Origin: Leptolyngbyaceae cyanobacterium C42_A2020_001
Lineage (GTDB): Bacteria > Cyanobacteriota > Cyanobacteriia > Leptolyngbyales > Leptolyngbyaceae
Length of the DNA stretch: 64,000 nt
Direction: 5' to 3'
Assembly: GCA_015272515.1 (NCBI GenBank)
Contig: JACYLN010000070.1
Span: forward strand, 1 to 64,000
Under the pieces are notes generated by a model. The model made no database searches. It was not told the origin of the DNA and was given only the letters and a program-made list of their open reading frames with translations. This document shows, piece after piece, positions 21,554 to 52,547 of the stretch. The first letter of the stretch is position 1, and each line of letters starts with the position of its first letter. A program made the translations under genes and the position numbers.

Positions 21554-22393
21554 CTATGCGGCGGGTTTAGCAGTCGCTTGAGGCGGCTTCTCACCCACTG
21601 AGCGAGACACTTCCACACCGTTTTCTTCCAAAATAACAATGGGTTCTGAGCCGTCGCCCAGTTCAATCCGCTTCACTAACACCTTACCGCCAGAAATCCG
21701 CTGTCCAGCGCTAACATAGCGGCTAGTAGCATCACCTGGAGCAACCACGATCGCTTGAGGCGTTCTACCCACCACGACGACACCTGTCACCTCAACTGCT
21801 TGTGCTATGTCAGTCGAGGGGCGGGGTGGCAGTGCATTTGCAGGTCGGGTGGGGGGCAGAGCAAAGCCTAATGGTGCATCTTGTGCCTTAGGAATAGAGG
21901 GAGATTCAATTTCTTTTTTGGGCGCATTCGCAATGCTGGGTCTGGGAATGCCAGGAAAACCAGGACGAGCGGCGGTTGTGCCTCCAGGCTGGCCAGTTCT
22001 CGTACCACCTGGACGGTTAGCTGGAAGTTGCGAAACTTGCGGAACGGGTCGAGCGGTCACCGTGGGTTTGGGCAGCTCCGGAGGTAGAACTGCAAACGGA
22101 TCTGCGGTGGCGCTGGTTTTGATTTCGGTTCTTACCTGCTTCTGGCGTTCCTGGGCATTGGTTGGCGGAATTAAGCCTGGCACTGGTGGCTGAATTGGGT
22201 TCCGAGCCGCAAGCGTTTGGGTGGCAGCAGGGGATTGAGTTGCATTGGGACTGGGGCTAGGAGCAGGACTAACTGCAACTGAAGGGCTAGGAGCAGGAGA
22301 CGTGGCTGCCGGGGGGGCAGTTTCTTCTGATGCACACCCCGCGATCGCCAGGGTTAAAACTCCAGCCCACGCAACTAACCAATTCCGATGCAT
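21554..22393 (-). CDS. Pro-rich lipoprotein with PilP/GspC-like C-terminus
   Basis: A 279-residue predicted lipoprotein with lipobox LAIAGC (C20). Residues about 25-195 are low-complexity, dominated by Pro, Ala, Ser and Thr, and likely extend through the periplasm or peptidoglycan. The last 75 residues (about 200-265, VEVTGVVVVGRTPQAIVVAP...YVSAGQRI) look like the small beta domain of PilP/GspC pilus and secretion proteins. No pilus genes are nearby, so this is only a structural guess. Confidence 0.75.
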   Translation of the reverse strand: MHRNWLVAWAGVLTLAIAGCASEETAPPAATSPAPSPSVAVSPAPSPSPNATQSPAATQTLAARNPIQPPVPGLIPPTNAQERQKQVRTEIKTSATADPFAVLPPELPKPTVTARPVPQVSQLPANRPGGTRTGQPGGTTAARPGFPGIPRPSIANAPKKEIESPSIPKAQDAPLGFALPPTRPANALPPRPSTDIAQAVEVTGVVVVGRTPQAIVVAPGDATSRYVSAGQRISGGKVLVKRIELGDGSEPIVILEENGVEVSRSVGEKPPQATAKPAA

Positions 22394-23447: not shown

Positions 23448-24112
23448 TCGATTTCTAGTAGTTCCCATCCCATTTAAAGCCCTAATCCGTTTTGGCTAAA
23501 GATCTAACGACAAGGCTGTAGCCATAATCTTCCTGCAACTGAGCAGTTGTTTAAACTGTAAACAAGGGAATGAGTGGGTAAACACTCTCAGGATTGAATT
23601 CAAAATGTAAACAATTATCCAGTTTTGCCGAACCCAAAATGAACCAGAATGGGATTTTTCAAACGGGGAGATTCTCGACTCGTAATAAATCTTAATAATC
23701 ATTGAAAGATAGACTTTCTCGGCTTCTCCTCAAAGCATAATCTTGAAAAAGCAAACCCTTAAGCTAGAAACGATTGCGGTGGACAAAACAGTTTCGTATT
23801 CTAGTTTCTGATACTTTATTGAAAATATCGCCTAAGATTTTTAAAGTGAACTGCTTGCTGATAATTTATTCGCGTTTAAGCAGATGGAACTCGTTCAATA
23901 ATTAGAGCAAAATAGTTAGAGGGTGTTTGAGCAGTATCAAATGTTTTGATTCGCCCCCTAAATCCTTCAATTCTTGGCAGATTTCTAAATCATCTCCCAA
24001 AATTTGAGAGCCTGGAGGATTTATTTGAGCAGCAATTCGCACTTTTCAAGCATCGTCTTTGACCGAGTTCCGTAAGAGCACATTTAGTTGACAAGACGTA
24101 GAGGAACTAATA
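23448..24112. other. 665-bp spacer with one MITE-like element
   Basis: Non-coding region between the M28 and MORN genes. It holds the element at 23918-24058. The rest (23448-23917) is AT-rich with no gene I can support. Confidence 0.5.
23918..24058. mobile_element. MITE-like element with AGAGG(G/A)TGTTTGA ends
   Basis: The left end AGAGGGTGTTTGAGCAGT (23918-23935) is matched in inverted form by the right end, which reads AGACGATGCTTGAAAAGTGC on the minus strand (24039-24058). The interior repeats a CCCCCTAAATCC core that is also inside the element at 6949-7051. The size is about 141 bp with no coding content. Confidence 0.65.
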
Positions 24113-24901
24113 ATGAGGAGTTGCTCAATGCCACGGGTCTTCCCATTCACAGCCGGAGTTGCACTATCCCTTCTCAGTACAGCCATGATTGTGGGGTATG
24201 CAGTTCCCTCTCAAGCAGCTTACGGATTTGTTGACCTCGCAGAGGGTTGGAGATGTGAGGGACAGTTTCAAGGAACCAGTGGACGCGGAATTTGTTTCCA
24301 GCGAGAAGAAATTGATCCTGGGAACCCCTATAAGTATTACCGGGGAGATGTCAGAAATGGCACCTTTAACGGGAGTGGGGTTTTGGTTTATGAGAATGAC
24401 GATCGCTACGAAGGGCAGATGCGAAACGGTCGTCCCAACGGCAAGGGCACCTTTTTAGAGGTGGCAAATAATCGTCGCTATCAGGGAGATTTTCGCAACG
24501 GCGAGTTTCATGGACAAGGCACTTACACCTTTGCTGACGGCAGCCGTTACGTTGGGCAGTTTGCAGGCGGGCAACCGCATGGAATTGGCACTTTCACCTT
24601 TTACGAAAACGGTAAAGTTGCATATACCTATACGGGACGTTTTTATCTCGGTGTGATTAACGGCAATGGTGCAGTTACCAGCGCCAGTGGAATTCGCTGT
24701 TCTGGGGTGTTTTACAGCAATACTTTAGCGGGTAAAGGAACCTGCACCTATCCACGTGGTAGCGCCTTTAAGACCTACACAGGGGAGCTGAAAAATGGTC
24801 TTCCCGATGGACGCGGTACCGCTGTTTACAACAACGGAAAACGTTTTACAGGAGAGTTCCGTGGTGGTGCACCGGGTCTTTCCACGGAAAACGGCTCGTA
24901 G
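24113..24901 (+). CDS. secreted MORN-repeat protein
   Basis: A 262-residue protein. A signal peptide (about 1-35, ending SQAAYG) is followed by an N-terminal Cys pair region and then about seven MORN units (YRGDVRNGTFNGSG, YEGQMRNGRPNGKG, YQGDFRNGEFHGQG, YVGQFAGGQPHGIG, YTGELKNGLPDGRG and others). MORN repeats form elongated beta platforms often bound to lipid or membrane. The ATG at 24113 has GAGGA upstream. It converges with the caspase-nSTAND-WD40 gene, 28 bp apart. The job is unknown. Confidence 0.88.
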   Translation: MRSCSMPRVFPFTAGVALSLLSTAMIVGYAVPSQAAYGFVDLAEGWRCEGQFQGTSGRGICFQREEIDPGNPYKYYRGDVRNGTFNGSGVLVYENDDRYEGQMRNGRPNGKGTFLEVANNRRYQGDFRNGEFHGQGTYTFADGSRYVGQFAGGQPHGIGTFTFYENGKVAYTYTGRFYLGVINGNGAVTSASGIRCSGVFYSNTLAGKGTCTYPRGSAFKTYTGELKNGLPDGRGTAVYNNGKRFTGEFRGGAPGLSTENGS

Positions 24902-24929
24902 GATTCTTAACCGTGTTGGTCCGCGCTCG

Positions 24930-27900
24930 TTAGGACGAAAGTGGTAAGGACGGGCAAGCAGTTGGAGTTAAGCGCAGGTAGCGTAAGCACTCTTCAGGTT
25001 TGAGTTGTCGGAGGCTGCGATCGCGCGCCAGTTCTAGCAAGCCTTGCCAATTTGCTGCCCACAAATGCAGGATACCGCTATCACTCAGCGTTGCTACGTG
25101 CTGTCCATCCGGGCTGAAAGTTACCTGCTTAATCAGCTCTTGGGCAGCGCCAGAACGAAGCGGTCGTAAAATCGCTCGTTCAACGCCAGTATTCGCATCC
25201 CAAAGTCTCGCAGTACCGTCTGCGCTGGCCGTTACTAGAAGCTGTCCATCCGGGCTAAAGTCTCCATCTAAAACCGCTCCTCGATGCCCTGCAAGAATCA
25301 CCTGCAATGCTCCTGTTGTTGCGTCAATCACTCGTGCAGTGCCATCAAGACTTGTTGTAAGAATGCGTTGACCATCGGCACTAAACTGAGCATTTGTCAC
25401 CGCATCAGAATGAGACAACGTGCGGATTAGCGCCCCAGAATCTGTATCCCAAATGCGGGCAGTGCGATCCCAACTGGCGCTGATAATTTGCTTTCCACTT
25501 GGGCTGAAATGTACGTGTTCCACCAGAGCTTCGTGGCCGGTCAGTTGGTGCAAAAGTTGACCGGATGATACGTCCCAAACGCGAAGAACCTTGTCTACTC
25601 CAATTCCTACCAGCTTTTGTCCATCTTGACTGAAAGCCAAGCGATGGATAATTGTTACTTGGGGTTGCTCTGACTTTGTTTGAGTCACGGTTTGCGACTC
25701 AGGCGTTGCGCTTTGCAGGGTGTGCAAATGGATCAACGATTGATCAGGCTGCATTTGCCAAACTTCAACACGCCCTTGATTGTTGGCGATCGCAAATAGC
25801 TTGCCATCGCTGCTGGCAACAACGCTTGATAACCGTGAATCAGTCGCTAACTGATCGATCAACCTGCCAGCCACAGAAGTGGGCTGAAGAGTGGTTGCAA
25901 TTGAATCGGGCTTGGTATCACCTCCGGAAACCATTTGCCAGCGCCGAAATGTACCATCGCTGCCCAGTACCAAAATTCCCGCATTAGGTTGAAAATTTGC
26001 CCACTCAATTGCACTATCTTTCAGTTTAAGGGAGGGCAGTTCGCCTCCCACAGTCGATGTCCATATTCGCACCGTGCCATCAGCGCCAGTAGTGGCAATC
26101 AAAGAACCATCCTGGCTGGGTTGAATCGACTGAATAGCGCTGGTATGTCCTTTCAACACACCAACTTCCTGCCCAGTGGCAGCATTTCGGATAGACACGA
26201 TCGCCGTAGAAGTATCAGGAGCAGGATTGCGTCCTGCAATCATAAGCTGTTGGCTGTCAGGGCTGAAGGCGATCGCACCTTGATCACTCCCTCCTGCACT
26301 CGATGTTTTATCAGACTGATTTTCTGCAATCCACTGCGCTCCAGACGAGAAATCTTTCACCGCAACCAACCCATTAGCGCTTAAAACCGCAAGTCGTTCA
26401 CCATTAGGGCTAAATAGCAGCATGGGTAAACGAGCAGAGCCAGCACCCGAAAAGCTTTGGTTCAACTCTGGTTGGGATTGGCGCAATTTTCCGGTTTGGG
26501 TATTCCAGAGTCGAATCTCACCCTGGCGATTTGCGATCGCCACCCACTGATCATTCGGACTAAGGGCTGCTTTTTCTACTAAACCTCTGGAGTTGAACAA
26601 CTGTTTTGGTCGGTTTTCTATCACCTGAAGCAACATTACCACTTGGGTATCAGCCACCAATAGTTGATTTCCATCAGCGCTAAATTGCAAACTATGGATA
26701 TCCATAAGCTGGGTTCTTTCGGCTAACAGCTTACCTGTAGCAATATGCCAAATCTTGAGAGTTTTTCCACTGCTGGCAGCCACCCACTTGCCCGTTGGAT
26801 CAACGGCAAATTGAGCGATCGCGGCAGAAAATCCTCCCAGGCGATGCTGTAATTCACCCGTTTCTACCGACCAAACCCGCACCTCAGGGGAGCGTTGAGC
26901 AACAGCAATCACAAACTTGCTATCGCCGCTAAAAGCAACCGATGTGATCACTCTTGCCGATGTAGCACCATCACTCGATTGCGAATCTTGCCACGGCAAG
27001 ACCCGTTGCATTTGACGATTGGTTAACGACCAGAGGCGAACCGTACCGTTCGTATCAATTGTGGCAAGCGAACGGTAGTCAGGGCTAAAGGTAACCTGTT
27101 GCAAGGCAACATTGTCAGCTTGCAGCGTTGCTTGTAGCCGCAGTTTTTGCAGTGCCGCCCGCAAACTAGCCTCTGCCTCGTAGGTATGCCCTCGCTCGGC
27201 GGCAAGGCGACTGATCAACAGCGAGGTAACTGGGTCATTGTCAGGCTCCTGCAAAACCGATTGCGCGATCGCCGACCACTGGCGCGATGTCGCAATTTGA
27301 AGTTGAAAATTTTTCTCCGCCTGGCTCTTATTCGCCACTCGATACTGAGCAAACGTAATCCCCAACGCTATCAGCAACGTACAAGGAACCGACACCTGCA
27401 ACAACCGTAGTTCTCGTTTCGTTCGATAATTCTCCTCTCGACTCACAGCAATATACTGCTGTGCCAGGGCAGACAACTCATCCGGATAATGAGCCAAAAA
27501 ATCTTCCGCATCAATTAAGCGGCTCCCCCGCAGTAGATATTCCGGCGATCTCATCTGTTCTGCTGCATTCCACTCCCGTGCACTCCGCTCAATCTGGCGT
27601 TGACGACGTAGCATTTCTCGGTTTTCATCCAACCAGGAACGCAACAGGCTCCAGTTACGAATCAACGCTTCATGGGCAATATCCACCGTCTCATGGCAAC
27701 CATTCCCTACAGACGGCTGAATTGCGTTGAAATCCACCACATGAGAAAGACGGGTGACGTTCAAGTTGTAGCCCTTCGTCAGCGTTGTTTGAATTTGGGG
27801 GAGTGATTGAGTCAATACTCCAGGTTGCCCAGTCTGAATGGATTTAGTTCGCACCACCTGAGCAAGACGTAGCGCTGTAGACACATTGGCAAACCGTTGG

Positions 27901-29780
27901 TCAATCCGTTCTTGGTGACAGTTAATTGGAGTGACCTGATTTGTCACAACCAATTTGGCAATTACCAGCTTTTCCAGCACCCGTTCAACAAGTTCAGCAG
28001 AAAAATGAGGACTCACCAATTCCGATTTCAACACGCGTCGTCGAGTATCTTCTGTGCCCTCTCCTAATTGAGTCAGTGCAATAAAAATGCGTTTTGCAAC
28101 CCGTTGCTCCTCATAAGACAGGCTGTAAAAAATCTCATCTGCTCGTTTTTGCAGCGTTCCTCGCACTCCCCCTAATTCGGCGTAGGCATCTAATGTGAGT
28201 CGGGGGGGACTACCGTTAGGGTCTTGCTGTCGTCGTTGCCACAGTTCTAACAGGGTGTATTGCAACAACGGTAGTTCACCGGGTGCACCGACGATGTCTA
28301 GCAAGATGTTGTAGACCAAGTTTGGCTCGCACACCAATCCCACCCGCTTTGCAGGCTTAATGATAGAAGCCTTGATTTGTTCATAGCTGAGCGGCGTAAC
28401 CATGACTAAGTGCTGTTCGATCTGTTCTGCTAAGCCTTTGTAGAATAGGCATTTATTAAAGAAGTCAGCCCGTAGAACAATGACCAGGCTAAATTGATCG
28501 CTCACATCCCGCAATGCAGACAGTAAGCAGTTGAAGAAACGGTTGCGATCGTGTTCAGCGTTTGGACCCTGACATAGGGTAAAAATTTCCTCAAACTGAT
28601 CAATAATCAGCACCATACGAGTGCTTTTATTTTCAGCAATCAAACTCGCGCGGATCAGTTGGGTTAACCCCGATGTGCCTTCCTGCAAAAATACTTCGGC
28701 GCGTCGCAGTTGCTCGGCTCGATCTACAGCGGTTGTTGCCGGATTGATAAAGGCATTTGCCAGACTCTTTAAAGGTTGCTCGGTGGGGGTAATCACTCGA
28801 ATTTGCCAGTTTTGACTGCCTGATAAGGCTTGCCCGCGCTGTAATTTGTGAACTAAGCCCGCTCTCACTAACGAAGATTTGCCACTACCAGATGCCCCTA
28901 ACACAGCAACAAAGTTGCCAGTTTTTAACTGATTGAGTAGTTGATCGGTTAGGCTTTCTCGCCCGAAGAAGTATTCAGCGTGTCCTTCCTCAAACGGTTC
29001 TAGCCCCCGATACGGACAAACATCTTGGGAAGGGGCTGTTTGTAACACGGTGAGCGGGTTGTGGCATCGAGTTAAAACGATTTCGCTACCAGAGTTCTCA
29101 AACAGGGGCTGCTGAGATTCGCCTTTCAGGGCATTACTGACCCAATCGGTTAGGGCATAGTTAGTGACGACCCCTGTTGGCAAACGGCGAGGGTCAAGTC
29201 CATCTAGCAGTGCTTGAGTGAAAACGCTGTATTGACCGTTTAGCGACTCGTAGGCGGTTTCGTACTCGCGGGAAGCTGCCATAAACAGGCGATCAGTTCC
29301 CGATTTGGCACCAGGGTCTGCTTCTAAAAAATTTAAGATTTCACCACTATGACAACAATCTAATAAGATAATTCGCTGCCTGACTGGACTTTCTTGCAGC
29401 AGTCGCCGCAGCCAAAAAAGCGATAAACCATAGAAATGTGCGCTGGGGTTCGCATCACTGGTTGCTAAGTAACCTTCGCGAATTCCAGCATCCTTCTGCA
29501 AGCCGTGCCCTGAAAAATAAAATAAGGCAGTATGGGGAATTGTGTCTCCTTTTGGCTTAAAAAGCTTGACTAAAGCCGCTTCTAGCTCTGCTAACGTTAC
29601 CGGAGTTTTAATTCCAACTCGCAGTTTTTCCGATTGAATGATTTCAGGAAGACGAGTAACCCGAAAGTCTCCAGTACTGTCCAATTGATGAGCGATCGCT
29701 TCTGCATCGTGAGCAGGTGCGTTCAGTACGGGTAAATACTGATAATTGCTAATCCCTACTACAAGGGCATCTCGTAGCAT
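24930..29780 (-). CDS. caspase-like / nSTAND1 NTPase / WD40 protein
   Basis: A 1616-residue signalling protein. Residues 1-240 form a caspase-like (metacaspase, C14) domain with catalytic H92 (YFSGHG) and C143 (LLDCCHSG). From about 255 (CPYRGLEPFEEGHAEYFFGRE) a STAND NTPase of the nSTAND1 type follows, with Walker A GASGSGKSS (295-303) and Walker B VLIIDQFEE (D394). A helical region runs to about 780, then one membrane-like segment (about 786-806). About 14 WD40 repeats follow (about 880-1590), ending in LRQLKPEECLRYL. The start codon has CAGGAG upstream. The layout suggests that ligand or partner binding by the propeller opens the NTPase and activates the protease, as in programmed cell death or antiphage systems. 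That is inference. Its neighbour, a MORN gene, is convergent. Confidence 0.93.
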   Translation of the reverse strand: MLRDALVVGISNYQYLPVLNAPAHDAEAIAHQLDSTGDFRVTRLPEIIQSEKLRVGIKTPVTLAELEAALVKLFKPKGDTIPHTALFYFSGHGLQKDAGIREGYLATSDANPSAHFYGLSLFWLRRLLQESPVRQRIILLDCCHSGEILNFLEADPGAKSGTDRLFMAASREYETAYESLNGQYSVFTQALLDGLDPRRLPTGVVTNYALTDWVSNALKGESQQPLFENSGSEIVLTRCHNPLTVLQTAPSQDVCPYRGLEPFEEGHAEYFFGRESLTDQLLNQLKTGNFVAVLGASGSGKSSLVRAGLVHKLQRGQALSGSQNWQIRVITPTEQPLKSLANAFINPATTAVDRAEQLRRAEVFLQEGTSGLTQLIRASLIAENKSTRMVLIIDQFEEIFTLCQGPNAEHDRNRFFNCLLSALRDVSDQFSLVIVLRADFFNKCLFYKGLAEQIEQHLVMVTPLSYEQIKASIIKPAKRVGLVCEPNLVYNILLDIVGAPGELPLLQYTLLELWQRRQQDPNGSPPRLTLDAYAELGGVRGTLQKRADEIFYSLSYEEQRVAKRIFIALTQLGEGTEDTRRRVLKSELVSPHFSAELVERVLEKLVIAKLVVTNQVTPINCHQERIDQRFANVSTALRLAQVVRTKSIQTGQPGVLTQSLPQIQTTLTKGYNLNVTRLSHVVDFNAIQPSVGNGCHETVDIAHEALIRNWSLLRSWLDENREMLRRQRQIERSAREWNAAEQMRSPEYLLRGSRLIDAEDFLAHYPDELSALAQQYIAVSREENYRTKRELRLLQVSVPCTLLIALGITFAQYRVANKSQAEKNFQLQIATSRQWSAIAQSVLQEPDNDPVTSLLISRLAAERGHTYEAEASLRAALQKLRLQATLQADNVALQQVTFSPDYRSLATIDTNGTVRLWSLTNRQMQRVLPWQDSQSSDGATSARVITSVAFSGDSKFVIAVAQRSPEVRVWSVETGELQHRLGGFSAAIAQFAVDPTGKWVAASSGKTLKIWHIATGKLLAERTQLMDIHSLQFSADGNQLLVADTQVVMLLQVIENRPKQLFNSRGLVEKAALSPNDQWVAIANRQGEIRLWNTQTGKLRQSQPELNQSFSGAGSARLPMLLFSPNGERLAVLSANGLVAVKDFSSGAQWIAENQSDKTSSAGGSDQGAIAFSPDSQQLMIAGRNPAPDTSTAIVSIRNAATGQEVGVLKGHTSAIQSIQPSQDGSLIATTGADGTVRIWTSTVGGELPSLKLKDSAIEWANFQPNAGILVLGSDGTFRRWQMVSGGDTKPDSIATTLQPTSVAGRLIDQLATDSRLSSVVASSDGKLFAIANNQGRVEVWQMQPDQSLIHLHTLQSATPESQTVTQTKSEQPQVTIIHRLAFSQDGQKLVGIGVDKVLRVWDVSSGQLLHQLTGHEALVEHVHFSPSGKQIISASWDRTARIWDTDSGALIRTLSHSDAVTNAQFSADGQRILTTSLDGTARVIDATTGALQVILAGHRGAVLDGDFSPDGQLLVTASADGTARLWDANTGVERAILRPLRSGAAQELIKQVTFSPDGQHVATLSDSGILHLWAANWQGLLELARDRSLRQLKPEECLRYLRLTPTACPSLPLSS

Positions 29781-29916
29781 TCTTATCTCTCCTGAATAAA
29801 AAAGCTTTAAAACTCAAAGGGCTGCTCGAAGGTTGGATCATCTCAGGTTCTCAGAAGTAGAAAGATTGCGTTTACTGACCTGCAATTGGTTTGAAACAGT
29901 TGAACCGCTTGCCTTT

Positions 29917-29936
29917 AGAGGATGTTTGAAAAGTGC
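29917..29936 (+). repeat. copy of the AGAGGATGTTTGAAAAGTGC repeat
   Basis: Matches the right end of the element at 23918-24058 (read on the minus strand) with two mismatches out of 20. No matching inverted end was found near it, so this is an orphan end or a remnant. Confidence 0.7.
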
Positions 29937-30401
29937 AAATACCCTCTTAAGAACAAACGAATGAAGCATTTGTTTTTAATTTGCTTGATATGATACAGGC
30001 ACTCACGCAAGTAAAAGTTATTTGCCAGGTATTTTTATCAGTGCAATTCATTTGAATCAGAAACATCAGAAAAATAGTCCATGAAGATTTTCAAACAAAT
30101 CTCCAGTCTAAAAGTAATTGAATTGTTTTTATCTGTAAAAGGGGGTGTGACCCTTTATTCAAAAGACTTCCAGAACTTTATTCAAAAAATTTCATTCTTA
30201 AGATTGTTCAGCAAAATATTAAACTCTTTGCATTCTTTTTGAAGTCAAAGAATTAACCATAAAAATAAAAAAATAATTCAAAACGAAATCGAGTAAATAC
30301 GGAAAAAACGTTGAGATCTCTCGTTAGCAAGCTTTTAGTCTCAGTATAATTGCGTATTCACGCCTCTAATTTACGTAAAATCCTGGTTCTCCGTAACCCT
30401 T

Positions 30402-30421
30402 TGAGGATGTCTTAAAAGTGC
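30402..30421 (+). repeat. diverged copy of the same 20-bp repeat
   Basis: TGAGGATGTCTTAAAAGTGC differs from the copy at 29917 at three of 20 positions, in the same orientation. It lies about 200 bp upstream of sppA. Confidence 0.6.
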
Positions 30422-36022: not shown

Positions 36023-36793
36023 ATGAAGTTTTTGGGAGTGGATTTTGGCTGGACTTCGGGCGCAAGCGGATTGTGCTGTTTAGGCTGGGAAAATGGCAGG
36101 TTGGAACTTCTGGATTTGCAACGCTATGCAGCGATCGCCGATGTTCTTGCATGGGTTGATGGTTGCCTTACTCCTGATGAGTCGGGTGTGGTTGCCGTAG
36201 ATGCCCCCACCCTAATTCCCAATGCCACAGGGATGCGTTTACCTGATCGCCTCGCACATAAGCATTTTGGTCGGTATCATGCGGGCTGCTACCCAGCGAA
36301 TTTGGGGTCGGCCTTTGCAGCGCGGACAGTAGCATTTGGTTTAAGTTTGGAAGAACGGGGCTTTCAACATGCACCTAGCATGGAACCCAAACAAGCCGGA
36401 CGGTTTCAGATCGAGGCGTTTCCCCATCCGGCGATCGTGCATCTATTTGGGTTACCGCAAATTTTGAAATACAAAAAAGGGCGGTTGGCAGAACGCCGCA
36501 CCGAATTAGCCCGATTACGGGACTATATCTTTGAGTATTTGCCTGCTCATGTTCCGTCGCTGAACCTGGCAAATACAAAAGTCTCCGTTCCAGAGATTCC
36601 CACTCGTGGAACGGAGTTGAAAGCAGTTGAAGACCAGTTGGACAGTGTGATTTGTGCCTACATTGCTGCTCATTGGTGGTATTGGGGGTTAGAGCGCAAC
36701 CTGGTACTGGGCGATCGCGCCGAGGGCTACATTGTCGTCCCTGTTCCCAATGGTCAACTCGCAGGCGGCACGGGCGGCATATCGGCGTTTTGA
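36023..36793 (+). CDS. DUF429-family protein
   Basis: A 256-residue protein of the DUF429 family, predicted to have an RNase H-like fold. The N-terminus MKFLGVDFGWTSGASG has the D..G pattern of that fold, with VVAVDAPTLIP and YKKGRLAERRTEL later. The acidic residues E203/D204 (KAVEDQLDSVICAYIA) are conserved positions near the end. Function is not established. The last 40 bp overlap the end of the convergent hydrolase gene. Confidence 0.85.
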   Translation: MKFLGVDFGWTSGASGLCCLGWENGRLELLDLQRYAAIADVLAWVDGCLTPDESGVVAVDAPTLIPNATGMRLPDRLAHKHFGRYHAGCYPANLGSAFAARTVAFGLSLEERGFQHAPSMEPKQAGRFQIEAFPHPAIVHLFGLPQILKYKKGRLAERRTELARLRDYIFEYLPAHVPSLNLANTKVSVPEIPTRGTELKAVEDQLDSVICAYIAAHWWYWGLERNLVLGDRAEGYIVVPVPNGQLAGGTGGISAF

Positions 36794-42944: not shown

Positions 42945-43125
42945 AGTCCTAACGATGCACGACTTAAGCACAAGGATGGATTTCTACAAGTCTCTTAATA
43001 ATGTGTTTATTAAGTGGAGTTGCAAAGGTTTCTAGATTGAGCCATTGACACAAGATCCAAGATTTTGCGACAGCGATTTGTTTGATGAACATCGTTTCCG
43101 AGTTTTCTTCATAAAGAAGGTGAGC

Positions 43126-44724
43126 ATGACAAGCACTGTTCCAGCAGCAGCGAGTCTGAATAAGTTTGAAAAGTTTAAGGCTGAGAAAGACGGGTTAGCA
43201 ATTAAAGCGGAGTTGGAGCACTTTGCTCAAATTGGCTGGGAAGCGATGGATGAAACCGATCGCGATCATCGGCTGAAATGGGTCGGTGTATTCTTTCGCC
43301 CGGTAACTCCAGGCAAGTTTATGGTGCGAATGCGGATGCCGAATGGTGTGGTTACCAGCGGTCAAATGCGTGTACTGGCAGGAGTGGTGCAACGATACGG
43401 CGAAGATGGCAGCGCTGATGTTACCACACGGCAAAATATTCAACTTCGAGGCATTCGGATTGAAGACATTCCTGATATTTTCAACCAGTTTGAAGAAGCT
43501 GGTTTAACCAGTGTTCAATCGGGGATGGATAACGTTCGCAACATCACTGGCTCACCCGTTGCAGGCATTGATGCCGATGAGTTGATTGATACACGAGGCT
43601 TGTGCCGCAAGGTGCAGGACATGATTACCAACAACGGTGAAGGCAATCCATCCTTTACAAATCTGCCGCGCAAGTTCAATATTGCGATCGCAGGCTGTCG
43701 CGACAACTCCGTTCACGCAGAGATCAATGACATTGCGTTCGTTCCTGCCTACAAAAACGACACCCTCGGTTTCAACGTTTTGGTGGGTGGCTTCTTCTCC
43801 GCCAAGCGTTGCGCCGCCGCAGTTCCGATGAATGTGTGGGTTGATCCACGAGACGTAGTAGCCCTATGCGAAGCTATTTTGATCGTGTATCGCAACCACG
43901 GCTTACGCGCCAATCGTCAGAAAGCTCGACTCATGTGGCTAATTGATGAATGGGGCATGGATCGGTTCCGGCAAGAGGTAGAGCAGCAGTTGGGCTATGC
44001 ATTGCAAACAGCCGCACCCAAAGACGAAATTGTCTGGGATAAACGAGATCACGTCGGGATTCATGCCCAAAAGCAGCCAGGGTTAAACTACGTTGGGCTA
44101 CACGTCCCGGTTGGACGGTTGTACGCCGCCGATATGTTTGACCTCGCTCGGATTGCAGAGGTTTATGGCAGTGGGGAACTGCGCCTTACTGTCGAGCAAA
44201 ACATCATTATCCCGAATGTGCCTGACTCGCGCCTGGCTCCTTTGTTGAATGAGCCGCTGCTCAATCGCTTTTCGATTAACCCTACCCCACTGGTGCGATC
44301 GCTGGTTTCCTGTACAGGTGCCCAGTTTTGCAACTTTGCCCTGATCGAAACCAAAAATCGGGCATTGGCAATGGCAAGAGAGCTTGATCAAGAGCTTTAC
44401 TGCTCTCGCCCCGTCCGCATTCACTGGACTGGTTGCCCCAACTCTTGCGGTCAACCCCAGGTAGCAGACATCGGTTTAATGGGCACTAAAACTCGTAAAG
44501 ATGGCAAAGCCGTTGATGGCGTTGATCTTTATATGGGCGGAAAAGTTGGCAAGGAAGCCGAATTGGGCGAATGTGTTCGTAAAGGCATTCCGTGTGACGA
44601 TCTCAAACCAATTTTACGAGAACTTTTGATCCAGAACTTTGGCGCAACATCACGCACCGAAGGGGCGATCGCATCCCCAGCAAATCTGGCATCCAGCCTT
44701 CAAATTACTTCAGACAACGCCTAG
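43126..44724 (+). CDS. nirA: ferredoxin-nitrite reductase
   Basis: Six-electron reduction of nitrite to ammonium with reduced ferredoxin, using a siroheme and a [4Fe-4S] cluster. From ATG 43126, with AAGGTGA upstream, it has 532 residues. The four cluster cysteines are C396, C402 (SCTGAQFC) and C437, C441 (TGCPNSC). A 27-codon in-frame extension to TTG 43045 sits in the leader and lacks a ribosome site. First gene of the nirA-nrtABCD-narB operon, behind the NtcA site. Confidence 0.97.
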   Translation: MTSTVPAAASLNKFEKFKAEKDGLAIKAELEHFAQIGWEAMDETDRDHRLKWVGVFFRPVTPGKFMVRMRMPNGVVTSGQMRVLAGVVQRYGEDGSADVTTRQNIQLRGIRIEDIPDIFNQFEEAGLTSVQSGMDNVRNITGSPVAGIDADELIDTRGLCRKVQDMITNNGEGNPSFTNLPRKFNIAIAGCRDNSVHAEINDIAFVPAYKNDTLGFNVLVGGFFSAKRCAAAVPMNVWVDPRDVVALCEAILIVYRNHGLRANRQKARLMWLIDEWGMDRFRQEVEQQLGYALQTAAPKDEIVWDKRDHVGIHAQKQPGLNYVGLHVPVGRLYAADMFDLARIAEVYGSGELRLTVEQNIIIPNVPDSRLAPLLNEPLLNRFSINPTPLVRSLVSCTGAQFCNFALIETKNRALAMARELDQELYCSRPVRIHWTGCPNSCGQPQVADIGLMGTKTRKDGKAVDGVDLYMGGKVGKEAELGECVRKGIPCDDLKPILRELLIQNFGATSRTEGAIASPANLASSLQITSDNA

Positions 44725-44804
44725 CTTTGTCGCTCCAACTCACCACAAAGTCTCAAATCACATTGAGACATCTTAGTCATTGAAATCAAAGGATTCTATT
44801 ACGT

Positions 44805-46145
44805 ATGTCGAATTTGTCTAGACGCAAGTTTTTGATCACTGCTGGAGCCACTGCCGCTGGCAGCATGATTATTCATGGTTGCAGTTCCGGTTCTAACAAC
44901 GCCTCCACCAACAGTTCTCCCAGCGCAGCACCCGCAGTCAACGTCAGCGCCGCCGATGCACCCGAAGTTACTGCTGCAACGCTCGGTTTCATCGCACTCA
45001 CTGATTCTGCACCACTCATCATTGCGTTAGAAAAGGGGATGTTTGCCAAGTATGGCATGAAAGATGTCAAGTTGGTGAAACAAACCTCCTGGGCAGCTAC
45101 CCGCGATAACCTGGTCACTGGCTCTCAGGGTGGTGGCATTGATGGAGCACACATTTTGTCCCCCATGCCCTACTTAATGACCACCGGAAAAATCACGGAT
45201 GGCAAGGAAGTACCCATGTACATCCTGGCGCGGCTCAATCTAGATGGGCAAGCTATTTCCCTTTCAAACACTTACAAGGATTTGAAAGTAGGCGTTGAAA
45301 GCGATGCTCTAAAAGACGCATTCACAAAAGCAAAATCGGGTGGCAAAGAAATTAAATGCGCTGTTACGTTCCCCGGTGGCACCCACGACCTGTGGATGCG
45401 CTACTGGCTGTCTGCAGGTGGCATTACCCCCGGCGAAGATGCATCTCTAATCGTAATTCCACCTCCACAAATGGTTTCCAACATGAAAGAAGGTCAAATG
45501 GAAGCCTTCTGTGTCGGTGAACCCTGGAATGCTCAACTGGTGAATCAGGGAATTGGTTACACCGCAATTACCACGGGTGAATTCTGGAATGGACATCCTG
45601 AAAAAGCGTTCACGCTACGGGCAGATTGGGTAGACAAAAATCCCAAAGCTGCAAAAGCTTTGTTGATGGGAGTAATGGAAGCTCAACAGTGGTGTGACAA
45701 GATGGAAAACAAGGAAGAGATGGCAGAAATCTGTTCCAAACGTGAGTACTTTAAAGCACCCGCAAAAGACATCATTGATCGTGCCAAAGGTAAGTTCGAT
45801 TATGGCAACGGCAAAGTGGTTGAGAACAGCCCACACCTGATGAAGTTCTGGAAAGATGGCGAAAACAGCGCATCCTATCCGTATCAAAGTCATGATCTGT
45901 GGTTTGTGACAGAAGACAAGCGTTGGGGCTATTTGCCTGGTGATCTAGACGCGAAAGAGCTAGTGAAGAAAGTCAACCGCGAAGATATCTGGCGCGAAGC
46001 CGCCAAGAGCTTGAGTGTGGCGGCAGCAGATATTCCCAAGACTCCTTCTCGGGGCATAGAAACCTTCTTTGATGGTGTCAAGTTTGATCCTGAAGATCCG
46101 GAAGCTTACCTCAAGAGCCTCAAAATCAAAACTCTCAAGGCTTAA
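44805..46145 (+). CDS. nrtA: nitrate/nitrite-binding lipoprotein NrtA
   Basis: Periplasmic high-affinity nitrate and nitrite receptor of the NrtABCD transporter. It has 446 residues. The signal carries both a twin-arginine motif (SRRKFL, R6-R7) and a lipobox (IIHGC, C26), so it is probably exported folded and then lipid-anchored. A Ser/Asn/Ala linker precedes the binding domain (about 55-440, TLGFIALTDSAPLIIALEKG; GEPWNAQL). It lies 80 bp after nirA. Confidence 0.96.
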   Translation: MSNLSRRKFLITAGATAAGSMIIHGCSSGSNNASTNSSPSAAPAVNVSAADAPEVTAATLGFIALTDSAPLIIALEKGMFAKYGMKDVKLVKQTSWAATRDNLVTGSQGGGIDGAHILSPMPYLMTTGKITDGKEVPMYILARLNLDGQAISLSNTYKDLKVGVESDALKDAFTKAKSGGKEIKCAVTFPGGTHDLWMRYWLSAGGITPGEDASLIVIPPPQMVSNMKEGQMEAFCVGEPWNAQLVNQGIGYTAITTGEFWNGHPEKAFTLRADWVDKNPKAAKALLMGVMEAQQWCDKMENKEEMAEICSKREYFKAPAKDIIDRAKGKFDYGNGKVVENSPHLMKFWKDGENSASYPYQSHDLWFVTEDKRWGYLPGDLDAKELVKKVNREDIWREAAKSLSVAAADIPKTPSRGIETFFDGVKFDPEDPEAYLKSLKIKTLKA

Positions 46146-46252
46146 TCACACAGGGTGAGTATTGGGTTTGACTGATTTCTCAAGCTCAATACTCTAATCT
46201 CCGCTTCAAGGTTTCGACTACTCCACTCCTCAAAGTACTTCAAGCACCCATC

Positions 46253-47083
46253 ATGGCAACACGCGCAGACATCAGTAATTTTCCAGCAACTTTCCTTGCT
46301 AATATCCCGACTTACTTCCAGAAAAATGCCCGTCGGCTTCTGGCTCCAGTGATTGCGTTAGTAGTTGCTTTGGCACTATGGCAACTCTTTGCTCAAATTA
46401 CCCAAACCCTACCCGGACCAATCCAGGTTGTCCAAGATACTTGGGATCCTTTGATCATCAATCCTTTCTATGTGGAAGGAGAGGATAAAGGCTTGGGTTG
46501 GCAAACCTTAGCCAGTCTTCAGCGAGTTGCGATTGGTTATTCGTTAGCGGCGGTGGTTGGAATTTTAGTGGGTGTACTGATTGGGGCATTTCCCCTTCTG
46601 TACGAAGCCGTTGATCCGATGTTTCAAGTACTTCGGACGGTTCCTCCGCTTGCCTGGTTGCCGATCGCCCTTGCGATTTTTAAAAACTCAGGTCCCGCGG
46701 GTATCTTCATCATTTTTGTGACTGCTATTTGGCCCATTGTTTACAACACAGCCGTGGGTGTACAACAGATGCCGCAGGACTACAAAAACGTCGCGAAAGT
46801 GCTGCGTTTGTCCAGTCGAGAATATTTCTTCGACATTTTGCTACCCTCCATTGTGCCTTATATGTTCACCGGGCTGAAGCTCGGCATTGGATTGGCGTGG
46901 TTGGCGATCGTAGCAGCAGAAATGCTGCGTGGCGACACTGGAATTGGCTTCTTCATCTGGAACTCTTACAACAGTGGAGCCATTAGTGAAGTAATTTTGG
47001 CACTGATTTACATCGGCATTGTTGGTTTCTTGCTCGATAAGTTGGTTGGCTTTTTAGCAACCCTCGTAAGTTCAGATAAGTAA
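46253..47083 (+). CDS. nrtB: nitrate ABC transporter permease NrtB
   Basis: Membrane subunit of the nitrate importer. It has 276 residues with about six helices (first near 30-50, LLAPVIALVVALALWQLF). The ATPase-coupling loop shows EAA-type features (KVLRLSSREYFFDILLPSIVPYMFTGLKLGIGLAW). It lies 107 bp after nrtA. Confidence 0.95.
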   Translation: MATRADISNFPATFLANIPTYFQKNARRLLAPVIALVVALALWQLFAQITQTLPGPIQVVQDTWDPLIINPFYVEGEDKGLGWQTLASLQRVAIGYSLAAVVGILVGVLIGAFPLLYEAVDPMFQVLRTVPPLAWLPIALAIFKNSGPAGIFIIFVTAIWPIVYNTAVGVQQMPQDYKNVAKVLRLSSREYFFDILLPSIVPYMFTGLKLGIGLAWLAIVAAEMLRGDTGIGFFIWNSYNSGAISEVILALIYIGIVGFLLDKLVGFLATLVSSDK

Positions 47084-47198
47084 GCAATCCAGAAGCCAAA
47101 AGCCAGAACAGGGTATGGGGTTTTGGGTATGGTGATTTACCGACCCCTCACCCCCTGACCCCTCACCCCCTTCCTATTCCCCTACTCCTCCTAGACCT

Positions 47199-49205
47199 AT
47201 GTCTTTTTTTGTAGAAGTTGACCACATCGATCGCGTCTTCGAGCTGCCCAACGGTGGACAGTACATTGCCCTCAAAAACATTGATTTGAAAATTCGGCAG
47301 GGTGAATTTGTTTCGCTGATTGGGCACTCCGGTTGTGGCAAATCCACCCTGCTCAACATTCTTGCCGGGTTAGATCGTCCCACAAACGGTGGGGTTGTAC
47401 TGGAAGGGCGAGAAGTGACCCAGCCCGGACCCGATCGCATGGTGGTGTTCCAGAACTACTCGTTGTTGCCCTGGCTGACGGTTCAGCAAAATATTGAACT
47501 GGCAGTCAACAAAGTTATGAAAAACCTGCCGAAAGCCGAGCGTGACAGCATTGTGGATCACCACATTAATCTCGTGGGATTGCGCCATGCGGTTCACAAG
47601 AAACCGAAGGAATTGTCCGGTGGGATGAAACAGCGGGTCGCGATCGCGCGTGCTCTAGCAATTCGTCCCAAATTGCTGCTGCTGGATGAACCTCTGGGCG
47701 CACTGGATGCCCTAACGCGTGGCAACTTGCAAGAGCAGTTGACGCAAATTTGCGAAGAAAGCCAGATTACCTGCGTTATGGTGACCCACGATGTAGACGA
47801 AGCGTTGCTGCTCTCTGACCGAATCGTCATGATGACGAATGGTCCCGAAGCCCAAATCGGTCAAATTCTAGATGTACCTTTTCCCCACCCCCGCAAACGG
47901 TTGGAAGTCGTCAATCATCCTAGCTACTATGCGTTGCGGAATGAGATTGTTTACTTCCTCAACCAGCAGAAACGGGATAAAAAGCGCAAATCGAAGAAGG
48001 TTGCCGCGATCGCGCGGCATGGACTGGAAAAAGTCAACCTCGACATTGGCTTTGTGCCCTTAACCGATTGTGCGCCGCTGGTGGTGGCAAAGGAAATGGG
48101 CTTCTTCGCCAAGCATGGGTTAGAAGAAGTTACTCTGTCACGAGAACCCAGTTGGAAAGCGGTTTTAGAAGGCATGGCTTCAAAGCGGTTGGATGCCGCT
48201 CAAATGGTTGCAGGAATGCCCCTAGCGATGACCCTCGGCTTTGGTGGCAAAGCTCCATTGCCCATGGTCACTTCGTTAGTACTTAGCCGCAACGGCAACG
48301 CCATCACACTGGATAGGGACTTGTTCGATCAAGGCGTGCGATCGCTAGAGGATTTTGCCAATCACATCAAGCAAACTCCTGATATCACAAATACCCTCGG
48401 CATTGTGCACGCTACCTCCATGCACAATCTGATGCTGCGCTACTGGCTGGCGGCTGGCGGCATTAATCCGGATCAGGATGTCACCCTGTCAGTGATTCCC
48501 CCCGCGCAGATGATCTCTAACTTGATAGCCAACAACATTGCAGGATACTGTGCTGGAGAACCCTGGAATTCTCGTGCCGTGTTTGAAGGCCAGGGAGTGA
48601 TTGTAGCGACAGACCTGGACATCTGGGCAGGACACCCTGAAAAAGTTTTAGGTGTGCAAGAAGAGTGGGCAAACCAGCATCCCCGAACCTACCTGGCAAT
48701 GGTGAAAGCCCTTCTAGAAGCGTGCGAATACTGTGACGATCGCCGCAACCGTGAAGAAATTTTGCAGTTGCTTTGCAAGCCTGAATACATTGGCTCTGCT
48801 CCAGAATACACTCGCCCCGGTTTCATCGACCCTTATAGCTATGGCATGGATGAAGAACCCCGCAGCCTACTCCGCTTCAACCAGTTTTATGTTGATTCCA
48901 GCAACTATCCACAGCCCTCTGAGAGTCTCTGGATTTTGACCCAATTGGCCCGTTGGGGCATCACTCCTTTCCCCAAAAACTGGGTTGAAATATTGCAACG
49001 TACTCATCGATTAGATGTGTACCGGGAAGCTGCTCAACAAGTTGGGTTGCCGCCCAGCGAACCGCATCGCAAACCCTTTCAGTTGTTTGACGAAGTGGTC
49101 TTTAACCCGGATGACCCCATTAGCTATCTCAACAACTTTGCTATCCACAACACCATTCGCATTGAAGAAATCAGCCTAGACAGCATCACAACGGTAGCTG
49201 CTTAG
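47199..49205 (+). CDS. nrtC: nitrate transporter ATPase with NrtA-like domain, NrtC
   Basis: Fusion of an ABC ATPase (about 1-255) and an NrtA-like domain (about 285-655) that regulates the transporter, as shown for cyanobacterial NrtC by others. The ATPase has Walker A GHSGCGKST, signature LSGGMKQR and Walker B LLLDEPLGALD. The C-terminal domain opens IGFVPLTDCAPLVVAKEMG. The fusion is intact at 668 residues. C/T-rich sequence (47150-47195) lies upstream. Confidence 0.96.
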   Translation: MSFFVEVDHIDRVFELPNGGQYIALKNIDLKIRQGEFVSLIGHSGCGKSTLLNILAGLDRPTNGGVVLEGREVTQPGPDRMVVFQNYSLLPWLTVQQNIELAVNKVMKNLPKAERDSIVDHHINLVGLRHAVHKKPKELSGGMKQRVAIARALAIRPKLLLLDEPLGALDALTRGNLQEQLTQICEESQITCVMVTHDVDEALLLSDRIVMMTNGPEAQIGQILDVPFPHPRKRLEVVNHPSYYALRNEIVYFLNQQKRDKKRKSKKVAAIARHGLEKVNLDIGFVPLTDCAPLVVAKEMGFFAKHGLEEVTLSREPSWKAVLEGMASKRLDAAQMVAGMPLAMTLGFGGKAPLPMVTSLVLSRNGNAITLDRDLFDQGVRSLEDFANHIKQTPDITNTLGIVHATSMHNLMLRYWLAAGGINPDQDVTLSVIPPAQMISNLIANNIAGYCAGEPWNSRAVFEGQGVIVATDLDIWAGHPEKVLGVQEEWANQHPRTYLAMVKALLEACEYCDDRRNREEILQLLCKPEYIGSAPEYTRPGFIDPYSYGMDEEPRSLLRFNQFYVDSSNYPQPSESLWILTQLARWGITPFPKNWVEILQRTHRLDVYREAAQQVGLPPSEPHRKPFQLFDEVVFNPDDPISYLNNFAIHNTIRIEEISLDSITTVAA

Positions 49206-49286
49206 ACAAAGCTGCACAAACGAGGGAAGTAAAACAGTAAGGACGCGATCGCGCCACTGCCCCTTCCCTCACATTTTTCAAATTCC

Positions 49287-50147
49287 ATGCTGCCCAACAT
49301 CCCCAAAACTCCTATGCAAACCCTCACCAGTCCACAAACGCCCACGCTGACTCACCAAAAATCAGCTTTCCTCGAAGTGGATAATGTTTCTAAAGTCTAC
49401 TCAACCCTACGCGGCGACTACACCGTCTTAGATGGAGTTAATCTTTCCGTCCAAGAAGGTGAATTTGTTTGCGTGATTGGGCATTCCGGTTGTGGTAAAT
49501 CCACCCTACTCAACATGGTTGCCGGATTCAATCAACCAACTAGCGGCCAAGTTCGCTTGAAAGGTAACAAAATCAGCCGCCCTGGTCCAGATCGCATGGT
49601 GGTGTTCCAGAATTACTCCCTCCTGCCCTGGAAAACCGCCTACGAAAACATTTATCTGGCAGTCAACGCTGTCTATCCCGAAAAGAGCAAAAAAGAGAAA
49701 ATCGAAATTGTTCGAGAGCACTTGGCAATGGTGGGTTTAGAAGAAGCCGCCCACAAAAAGCCAGGACAACTCTCAGGTGGGATGAAACAACGTGTCTCGA
49801 TCGCCCGTGCCCTTTCCATCTATCCCGAAATCTTGATTTTGGATGAACCGTTTGGAGCACTGGATGCCATCACCCGCGAAGAACTGCAAGACGAACTGGT
49901 GAAAATTTGGGAAGAGCACCGCATCACCGTCATGATGATCACCCACGACATTGACGAAGCGCTGTTCTTAGCAGATCGCATCGTAATGATGACCAATGGA
50001 CCTGCCGCCAAAATTGGTGAAATTATGGAAGTCAATTTCCCGCACCCCCGCAACCGTACCCAAATGATGGAAGACCCAGAATACTACACCCTACGGAACC
50101 AGGCACTTGATTTCCTGTTTGGACGCTTCGCGCATCACGAAGATTAA
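49287..50147 (+). CDS. nrtD: nitrate transporter ATPase NrtD
   Basis: Second ATPase of the importer, without the receptor-like domain. It has 286 residues. Walker A GHSGCGKST, signature LSGGMKQR and Walker B LILDEPFGALD are all present. ATG 49287 is used; ATG 49314 is possible because the first residues are a poorly conserved Thr/Pro-rich stretch. NrtC and NrtD form the heterodimeric motor of the transporter. Confidence 0.96.
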   Translation: MLPNIPKTPMQTLTSPQTPTLTHQKSAFLEVDNVSKVYSTLRGDYTVLDGVNLSVQEGEFVCVIGHSGCGKSTLLNMVAGFNQPTSGQVRLKGNKISRPGPDRMVVFQNYSLLPWKTAYENIYLAVNAVYPEKSKKEKIEIVREHLAMVGLEEAAHKKPGQLSGGMKQRVSIARALSIYPEILILDEPFGALDAITREELQDELVKIWEEHRITVMMITHDIDEALFLADRIVMMTNGPAAKIGEIMEVNFPHPRNRTQMMEDPEYYTLRNQALDFLFGRFAHHED

Positions 50148-50333
50148 GCATTAAGCCACGGTTTGAAGCGATTCCCGATGCCCTTCTGGAAATTCATACG
50201 TTTTCCGCGTTGGGAGAAACCTTTTCAATCAAATTCCCTGCTTGCGCTTGAGAGTCAATGAAACCAACCTTTTCACTCCCGTAATTGTGTCTGGAATGTT
50301 TGAGCTTGCTGAACAAACGGATCTAGTAGAAGA

Positions 50334-52547
50334 ATGACGACGACTTCGGCAAAAACCCTTTGCCCGTATTGCGGAGTTGGCTGTGGCTTAGAGGTAATTG
50401 CTTCAGCTCAACCCAACAGCACAAACGGTCAAAAAAACCAGGAAAATCTTGCATGGAAAGTGCGGGGCGATCGCGCCCATCCTTCCAGCCAGGGTATGGT
50501 CTGCGTTAAAGGAGCCACCATTGCCGAAGCGCTCGATAAAAATCGCTTGCTCCACCCCATGTTCCGAGAGCAATTAGATCAGCCCTTTCAGCAGATTAGT
50601 TGGGATGAAGCCCTGAATCATGTAGTTAACCGAATTCAGAGCGTTCGTGCGGCACAAGGCTCCGATGCCATCTGCATGTACGGCTCAGGACAAATGCAAA
50701 CAGAAGATTACTATGTAGCTCAAAAGCTGCTGAAAGGATGTTTAGGCACCAATAACTTCGACTCCAACTCTCGCCTGTGTATGTCCGCCGCTGTCTCCGG
50801 CTATGTTCAAAGCCTGGGTTCAGACGGTCCGCCCTGCTGTTATGACGATCTGGAACAAACCGATTGCGCTTTCATCATTGGAGCAAATGCGGCTGAATGC
50901 CATCCCATTGCCTACAATCGATTACAGAAGCATCATAAAAAAAATCCCGCTGTCAAAACAATCGTAGTTGACCCACGCCGAACCCAAACGGCGGAAGATG
51001 CCGACCTGCACTTAGCGATTCAACCTGGAACGGATATTGATTTGCTTAATGGCATCGCCTATTTGTTGTTGCAGTGGGGATACAGCCATTCGACCTTTAT
51101 CGAAAATCACACATCCGGGTTTGCAGCATTTGCAGAAACTGTTCGTCAGTACCCACCAGATTTTGTGGCGCAGCGGTGTGGCATTTCAATTCGCGATTTA
51201 GAAACCGCTGCTCGTTGGTGGGGCACATCAGAACGAGTCCTCTCGCTTTGGTCAATGGGAATCAACCAATCCAGTGAGGGCACTGCAAAAGTGCGTTCCA
51301 TCATCAATTTGCATTTGCTGACTGGGCAAATCGGCCAACCTGGAGCGGGGCCGTTCTCCCTGACTGGGCAACCTAATGCCATGGGTGGGCGAGAAGTTGG
51401 CGGATTGTGCAATTTGTTGCCTGGGTATCGTCATGTGATGTTTCCGGAGCAGCGAGCAGAAGTTGAGCAGTTTTGGGGACTGCCTGCTGGACAGATTTCT
51501 GGAAATTGGGGGCGTACTGCCTGGGAAATTATCACGGGACTGGAAACAGGCGAAGTTGGCTTGCTGTGGGTTGTTGCAACCAATCCAGCCGTGAGTTTGC
51601 CCGATGGAGAACGGGTGAAACAGGCATTGACGCGATCGCCCTTCACAATTTGCCAGGATGCCTACTATCCTACGGAAACGGCAGAATACGCCCATCTATT
51701 GCTGCCCGCAGCGCAATGGGGCGAAAAAACAGGCACCATGACCAACTCCGAGCGCGTTGTAACCTTGTGTCAAGCGTTTCGGGAGCCTCCCGGAGAAGCC
51801 CGCCCCGATTGGGAAATTATTGCGGAAGTGGGGCGACGGCTGGGCTTCGCCGACAAGTTTCCCTTTATCACTTCCGCGGAAGTGTACGCCGAGTATGTGC
51901 AGCTTACCTATGGACGGCTCTGCGACATGAGCGGCATCAGCCACGATCGCCTGTGTCAAGAAGGTCCGCTGCAATGGCCTCTCTCGGCTGCTGATCAGTC
52001 CTCTACGAGTCATACGAATAAACGGCTGTATACAGATTGGCAGTTTCCCACCCCCGATAGTCGTGCCCGCTTTGGAGCTTATCATTCACGCGGGTTAGCA
52101 GAGCCAGCCGATCCCGCCTATCCCTTTGTGCTAACAACAGGCAGACTGTATGGGCACTGGCACACCCAAACCCGCACGGGCAGAATCGAGAAAATCCGCC
52201 AGATGCATCCCGACCCCTTTATCGAAATGAATCCACGGGATGCGGAGAATCTTGGGGTGCAGGAGAGTGATTGGGTCGAGGTGCGATCGCGACGCGGCAT
52301 AACGCGGTTCCCCGTAAAATTAACTCGCTTCATTGCAATGGGCACCGTATTTGTGCCAATTCACTGGGGCGCGCTTTGGGCCGATCAGGCAGAAGCCAAC
52401 ACCCTCACCCATGCCGAATGTTGTCCCGATTCTAAACAGCCAGAATTGAAAGCTTGCGCCGTGCAGGTTGTGCCGCTGCCTAGCGAAAAGACGTTCGTTC
52501 GGTGCGAAGCGCGATCGCTGGAAGCCTCATCCTCAACTGGTCTCTAA
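50334..52547 (+). CDS. narB: ferredoxin-nitrate reductase NarB
   Basis: Reduces nitrate to nitrite using ferredoxin, with a Mo-bis-MGD cofactor and a [4Fe-4S] cluster. It has 737 residues. The cluster cysteines are C10, C13, C17 and C57 ([15 protein letters not shown]). MGD-binding segments such as [19 protein letters not shown] and SRLCMSAAV follow. The C-terminal molydopterin dinucleotide domain shows [18 protein letters not shown]. Last gene of the nitrate operon, 186 bp after nrtD. Confidence 0.97.

What the first reader, a model, noticed from the sequence alone, without database searches (positions are those of the whole stretch)
24039..30421. Caspase-nSTAND1-WD40 gene and MORN partner bracketed by related 20-bp repeats
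Seen: the 1616-residue gene joins a caspase-like protease (H92, C143), an nSTAND1-type NTPase and about 14 WD40 repeats, convergent with a secreted MORN protein at 28 bp. Copies of one 20-bp motif lie on both sides: 24039-24058 (inverted), 29917-29936 and 30402-30421. Known: caspase and STAND proteins of this type act in prokaryotic immunity and cell death. Inferred: the module may be a mobile or horizontally moved defence unit, with the WD40 propeller as sensor and the repeats marking its edges.
Basis: partly seen in the sequence, partly recalled or inferred. Interest (0 to 1): 0.72.

Follow-up and report, generated by a model that had tools for sequence, protein, structure and literature searches.

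The report
Cyanobacterial caspase-STAND-WD40 protein, ordinary repeats
A large cyanobacterial gene encoding a caspase-like protease joined to a molecular switch and a WD40 sensor is a real but already described kind of cell-signalling or cell-death protein; it was inherited in place, and the short repeats around it are leftovers of tiny jumping elements, not the edges of a mobile defence unit.

Summary
The sequence observations are correct. A 1616-aa ORF (24930-29780, -) encodes Peptidase_C14 (H92/C143), nSTAND1, one predicted TM helix and about 15 WD40 repeats. It converges with a secreted MORN gene (28-bp gap), and the three 20-bp motifs lie where stated. The mobile-unit reading fails. The motifs are ends of MITE-like elements: a full 139-bp copy at 23919-24057, a 29-bp remnant with TTA/TTA flanks at 29918-29946, and a decayed end at 30403. 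The closest complete genome (same genus) has the same gene order from agmatinase to MDH, caspase gene included, but lacks all three motifs. So the repeats moved and the gene did not. Orthologues (69-91% over the caspase-nSTAND1 part) occur in 17 of 35 family genomes, and their tree matches SppA's in its main clades. MORN adjacency is limited to two genera. The caspase domain is under strong purifying selection (dN/dS 0.016), while WD40 diverges much faster (0.06-0.22). This architecture, a membrane-spanning 'true orthocaspase', is already described in cyanobacteria (PMC7475262). Most likely it is a vertically inherited receptor-switch-protease resembling a one-chain apoptosome. Its signal and substrates remain unknown.

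The parts
24930..29780 (-). Caspase(C14)-nSTAND1-TM-WD40 gene, 1616 aa
   Evidence: orthologues
29031..29780 (-). Caspase domain (aa 1-250), His92/Cys143
   Evidence: Peptidase_C14 E 9.4e-18; dyad conserved in all 18 orthologues; dN/dS 0.016
27555..29015 (-). nSTAND1 NTPase (aa 256-742), Walker A GASGSGKSS, Walker B LIIDQFEE
   Evidence: Pfam E 1e-119; motifs conserved
27345..27404 (-). Predicted single transmembrane helix (aa ~793-812)
   Evidence: Kyte-Doolittle peak 1.98; conserved hydrophobic stretch in the orthologues that cover this region; inferred, not shown
25053..27140 (-). About 15 WD40 repeats (aa 881-1576)
24933..25052 (-). Conserved C-terminal tail (aa 1577-1616)
   Evidence: majority fraction 0.80 against 0.59 for WD40
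24113..24901 (+). Secreted MORN-repeat protein; a neighbour, not a conserved partner
23919..24057 (-). 139-bp MITE copy, 74% identical to the 140-bp copy elsewhere in the genome; contains the 24039 motif as one terminus
   Evidence: absent in sister genome
29918..29946 (+). 29-bp internally deleted MITE remnant, TTA/TTA flanks
   Evidence: absent in sister genome
30403..30422 (+). Decayed single MITE terminus
   Evidence: absent in sister genome

Best explanation
The gene encodes a vertically inherited, probably membrane-tethered true orthocaspase that works like a one-polypeptide apoptosome. A ligand or stress cue is read by the WD40 region of about 15 blades. The nSTAND1 NTPase then switches and oligomerises, which brings the N-terminal caspase domains together and activates them for proteolysis leading to regulated cell death, dormancy or stress signalling. 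If the predicted TM helix is real, the basic residues before it favour a cytosolic caspase-nSTAND1 part and a WD40 part outside the plasma membrane. The 20-bp repeats are unrelated MITE termini, and the MORN gene is a neighbour. Shown here: domains, intact catalytic residues, selection pattern, vertical inheritance and the nature of the repeats. Inferred: membrane topology, oligomerisation, protease activation, ligand and outcome.
For: C14, nSTAND1 and WD40 domains. H92/C143 and Walker A/B conserved in all 18 orthologues compared. dN/dS between G000 and G002 is caspase 0.016, nSTAND1 0.038 and WD40 0.06-0.22, with similar dS throughout; neighbouring MDH is 0.033 and SppA 0.038. Identity to the window protein is 72-94% for caspase but 24-70% for WD40. 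The CASP and SppA trees share their main clades. Gene order is conserved from agmatinase to MDH in the same genus, and CASP lies beside or close to SppA in five genera. The sister genome lacks all three motifs. The motif is the terminus of MITEs with TNA duplications, with 47 matches in G057. The same architecture and topology were proposed for cyanobacterial orthocaspases (PMC7475262).
Against: No functional data. The TM helix is modest (KD 1.98, with a proline). The N-terminal AlphaFold model is poor (pLDDT 54). The gene is present in only about half the family genomes, so it is dispensable. dS is saturated (1.4-1.9 within the gene), so only the contrast between domains is reliable. In the two trees the deep positions of G003 and G027/G018 differ.
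Confidence: 0.72

Rival explanations
1. Mobile or horizontally moved defence unit bounded by the 20-bp repeats.
For: Three related motifs near the module; 3 of the 6 genome-wide copies with at most 2 mismatches lie within 6.4 kb, P about 8e-5 post hoc. PADLOC caspase model hits at 4e-14.
Against: Sister genome has the module without the repeats. The 24039 copy is one end of a complete outward-lying MITE. CASP and SppA trees agree in their main clades. The 29918 and 30403 copies are in the same orientation. The flanks are mostly housekeeping genes.
Confidence: 0.03
2. Phage-sensing STAND immune receptor (functionally Avs/NLR-like) in which WD40 binds a phage protein and the caspase triggers abortive infection. 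This is one possible outcome of the best explanation, not exclusive of its mechanism.
For: nSTAND1 and caspase are recurrent in predicted bacterial conflict systems (PMC7159879, PMC10907252). WD40 diverges much faster than the effector, most in d-a loops.
Against: Strong purifying selection and long-term residence beside housekeeping genes are unlike most defence islands. Only a generic caspase model and two very weak mads models hit in PADLOC. A predicted TM would put WD40 outside the cytosol. Loop variability is partly expected of any WD40 protein.
Confidence: 0.3
3. Homeostatic regulated protease for envelope or redox stress, without cell death. Also a possible outcome of the same receptor-switch-protease mechanism.
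For: Caspase domain more constrained than MDH; conserved neighbours include SppA and a DUF4953 met-zincin protease gene.
Against: No substrate or expression data; gene absent from about half the family.
Confidence: 0.35
4. Caspase and MORN form a two-gene functional module.
For: Convergent adjacency in genera g1 and g18.
Against: MORN occurs without adjacent CASP in G013, G015, G004, G020 and G024, beside the gene equivalent to 21554; CASP occurs without adjacent MORN in G007, G013 and G029. Convergent orientation precludes an operon.
Confidence: 0.05

Closest known systems
Cyanobacterial true orthocaspases with AAA_16/NACHT-TM-WD40 architecture (e.g. Ava_0039, Ava_3079, GEI7407_1667; PMC7475262)
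   Same: N-terminal p20 with intact His/Cys, STAND-type NTPase, TM, C-terminal WD40; extracellular WD40 already proposed
   Different: Nothing essential; this is one ortholog group, here shown to be vertically inherited with a fast-diverging WD40 region
Apaf-1/CED-4 apoptosome
   Same: STAND NTPase followed by WD40 repeats in a caspase-activating context; Apaf-1 structures are among the fold matches of the WD40 region
   Different: Caspase is fused in cis, no CARD, nSTAND1 rather than AP-ATPase, predicted TM helix; generic double-propeller proteins match as well or better
Avs / NLR-like bacterial STAND defence proteins
   Same: STAND switch with C-terminal sensor and N-terminal effector
   Different: Caspase effector, WD40 sensor, predicted TM; no phage data
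EACC1-associated caspase systems (NCBIfam NF047832; PMC7159879)
   Same: Related caspase domain (96 bits), membrane-linked
   Different: Below curated cut-off (140 bits); no ORF of 80 aa or more between the caspase start and SppA, apart from one running antisense into SppA, that could be an EACC1 gene
Cyanobacterial MITEs
   Same: 77-541 bp, terminal inverted repeats, mostly intergenic (Anabaena sp. 90, PMC3542288)
   Different: This family's TIR (GAGGATGTTTGAAAAGT) was not matched to a named family here

Membership tests
True orthocaspase (bacterial C14 with intact dyad) | p20 fold family with catalytic His and Cys | tested here: met
   Peptidase_C14 E 9.4e-18; H92/C143 conserved
True orthocaspase (bacterial C14 with intact dyad) | Proteolytic activity | not testable with these tools
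   needs biochemistry
nSTAND1-type STAND NTPase | nSTAND1 profile with Walker A/B | tested here: met
   PF20703 E 1e-119, motifs conserved
Membrane-spanning orthocaspase receptor (PMC7475262) | TM helix between NTPase and WD40 | tested here: inconclusive
   hydropathy 1.98, conserved; no topology assay
Known anti-phage system (PADLOC) | Match to a complete defined system | tested here: not met
   only the generic caspase model (4e-14) and mad3/mad8 at about 1e-4
EACC1-caspase system | EACC1 gene adjacent and caspase model above cut-off | tested here: not met
   96 bits against cut-off 140; no plausible EACC1 ORF of 80 aa or more upstream
Mobile element or island with terminal repeats | Repeats co-occur with the module; empty site without it | tested here: not met
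   sister genome has the module but no repeats
MITE (the 20-bp motifs) | Short non-coding element with TIRs and target-site duplication, multiple copies | tested here: met
   mostly 82-164 bp, TIR GAGGATGTTTGAAAAGT / GAGGGTGTTTGAAAAGT, TNA duplications, 47 matches in G057; window copy 23919-24057 has degenerate flanks TTA/TTT

The most novel reading that the evidence does not exclude
A long-retained, vertically inherited single-chain apoptosome spanning the plasma membrane, whose caspase-NTPase engine is frozen while its extracytoplasmic WD40 receptor surface diversifies between species, i.e. a chromosomally fixed innate-immune or self-recognition receptor rather than a mobile defence gene.
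Probability: 0.2. Interest if true: 0.55.

Novelty: new member of a known kind. Interest (0 to 1): 0.22.

Why it matters
It removes a false lead (repeats as edges of a defence island) and replaces it with a cleaner one: a widely conserved cyanobacterial caspase-STAND-WD40 ortholog group with a strongly constrained protease and a fast-diverging sensor. That makes it a good candidate for testing whether prokaryotic caspases act as receptors in regulated cell death.

Tried and rejected
Mobile unit with repeat edges: rejected. MORN as conserved partner: rejected. The 29918 and 30403 motifs as a TIR pair: rejected, same orientation. EACC1 system: rejected. PDB sequence search with the caspase domain gave nothing, and with nSTAND1 only a weak ABC-transporter hit. 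AlphaFold of the N-terminal half was too poor to interpret or search. A paper search for secreted bacterial MORN proteins in cyanobacteria returned nothing. The right end of the 30403 element was not found.

Full report
What was checked. The ORF at 24930-29780 (-) is 1616 aa and the MORN ORF at 24113-24901 (+) ends 28 bp from its stop. Profile searches give Peptidase_C14 (9e-18), nSTAND1 (1e-119), WD40 and MORN. The dyad is H92 in SGHG and C143 in DCCHSG.

What the repeats are. Six sites in the 5.55-Mb genome match the 19-bp core with at most 2 mismatches. The perfect copy on contig C43 is one terminus of a complete 140-bp element: GAGGATGTTTGAAAAGTGC...CACCCTC, flanked by TAA on both sides. 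The same element lies in the window at 23919-24057 (74% identity over the full length, E 1.5e-15), so the 24039 motif is the module-facing end of an element lying outside the module. The 29918 copy reads TTA-GAGGATGTTTGAAAAGTGCAAATACCCTC-TTA, a 29-bp internally deleted remnant; the 30403 copy keeps one terminus only. In relatives the same terminus bounds short elements of 82, 107, 131 and about 163 bp (one of 362 bp), most with TNA target duplications, with 47 matches in one genome of another family (G057). They are too short to encode a transposase. They are therefore MITEs. TNA duplication is typical of some IS5-family groups (own knowledge; no autonomous partner was sought).

Did the module move? 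The evidence says no. The closest complete genome (G002, same genus) has agmatinase, two hypotheticals, M28 peptidase, MORN, caspase, SppA, PHP and MDH in the same order and orientation, and aligns across both intergenic regions with gaps where the motifs are. The caspase-nSTAND1 part is found at 69-91% identity in 17 of 35 family genomes and at E <= 1e-200 in 51 of 291 sampled class genomes (the weaker of these may be paralogues). It lies next to SppA in G001, G002 and G013. In G003, G007 and G029 it lies close to SppA, with a DUF4953-type met-zincin gene (identified by profile in G029) in between; in G017, G018 and G027 it lies next to that met-zincin. Maximum-likelihood trees of SppA and of the caspase-nSTAND1 part recover the same main clades, with only some deep placements differing. 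MORN is convergent with the caspase gene only in genera g1 and g18; in several other genera it sits beside the gene equivalent to 21554-22393 with no caspase nearby. Nearby genes are mostly housekeeping, including a nitrate-assimilation cluster, so this is not a defence island.

How it probably works. All 18 orthologues keep the dyad and Walker motifs. Between G000 and G002 dN/dS is 0.016 in the caspase domain, 0.038 in nSTAND1, 0.047 in the linker and 0.06-0.22 in the WD40 quarters, with dS 1.4-1.9 throughout; MDH is 0.033. dS is near saturation, so only the contrast is meaningful. The WD40 region models well (pLDDT 81, 59 strands, about 15 repeats) and matches double-propeller proteins, best 2ymu, with Apaf-1 among the hits. 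Variation is highest in d-a loops (0.48 majority fraction against 0.72 for a-b loops), partly because a-b loops carry the WD40 consensus. A conserved hydrophobic helix at about 793-812, preceded by basic residues, lies between nSTAND1 and WD40. Inference: WD40 receives a signal, nSTAND1 oligomerises, caspase domains activate each other. The signal, substrates and outcome are unknown.

Comparison with the known. PMC7475262 lists cyanobacterial true orthocaspases with AAA_16/NACHT, a TM and WD40 and proposes extracellular WD40; PMC8283722 finds WD40 and AAA_16 to be the commonest accessory domains. This protein is a member of that described kind. It is not a PADLOC-defined system and not an EACC1 system.

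Residual oddity. Three of six genome copies of the MITE terminus lie within 6.4 kb (P about 8e-5 by simulation), but the count is post hoc, and the pattern was taken from this locus.

Noticed in passing
window 36023-36793 (+): DUF429 protein matching PADLOC candidate defence family PDC-S44 at E 1e-104.
   Followed up: no
window 43045-52547: Nitrate assimilation cluster: NIR_SIR reductase, NMT1-like binding proteins, an ABC-NMT1 fusion (NrtC-like) and a molybdopterin oxidoreductase.
   Followed up: no
window 21554-22393 (-): Proline-rich lipoprotein-like gene with no Pfam match; it is the more conserved neighbour of the MORN gene across genera.
   Followed up: partly
G057 (e.g. L229, L230, L233, L234): 47 matches to the terminus of a ~163-bp MITE family with TNA target duplications; autonomous partner not identified.
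   Followed up: partly
G002 caspase orthologue (L177, - strand from 13043): Catalytic motif reads DCCYSG instead of DCCHSG; the Cys is kept.
   Followed up: no
L190, L191, L192, L193, L195, L196: A DUF4953/DUF5117-type met-zincin gene (profile match in L192) lies directly upstream of the caspase gene, divergent from it, in many relatives but is missing there in the window's genus.
   Followed up: partly
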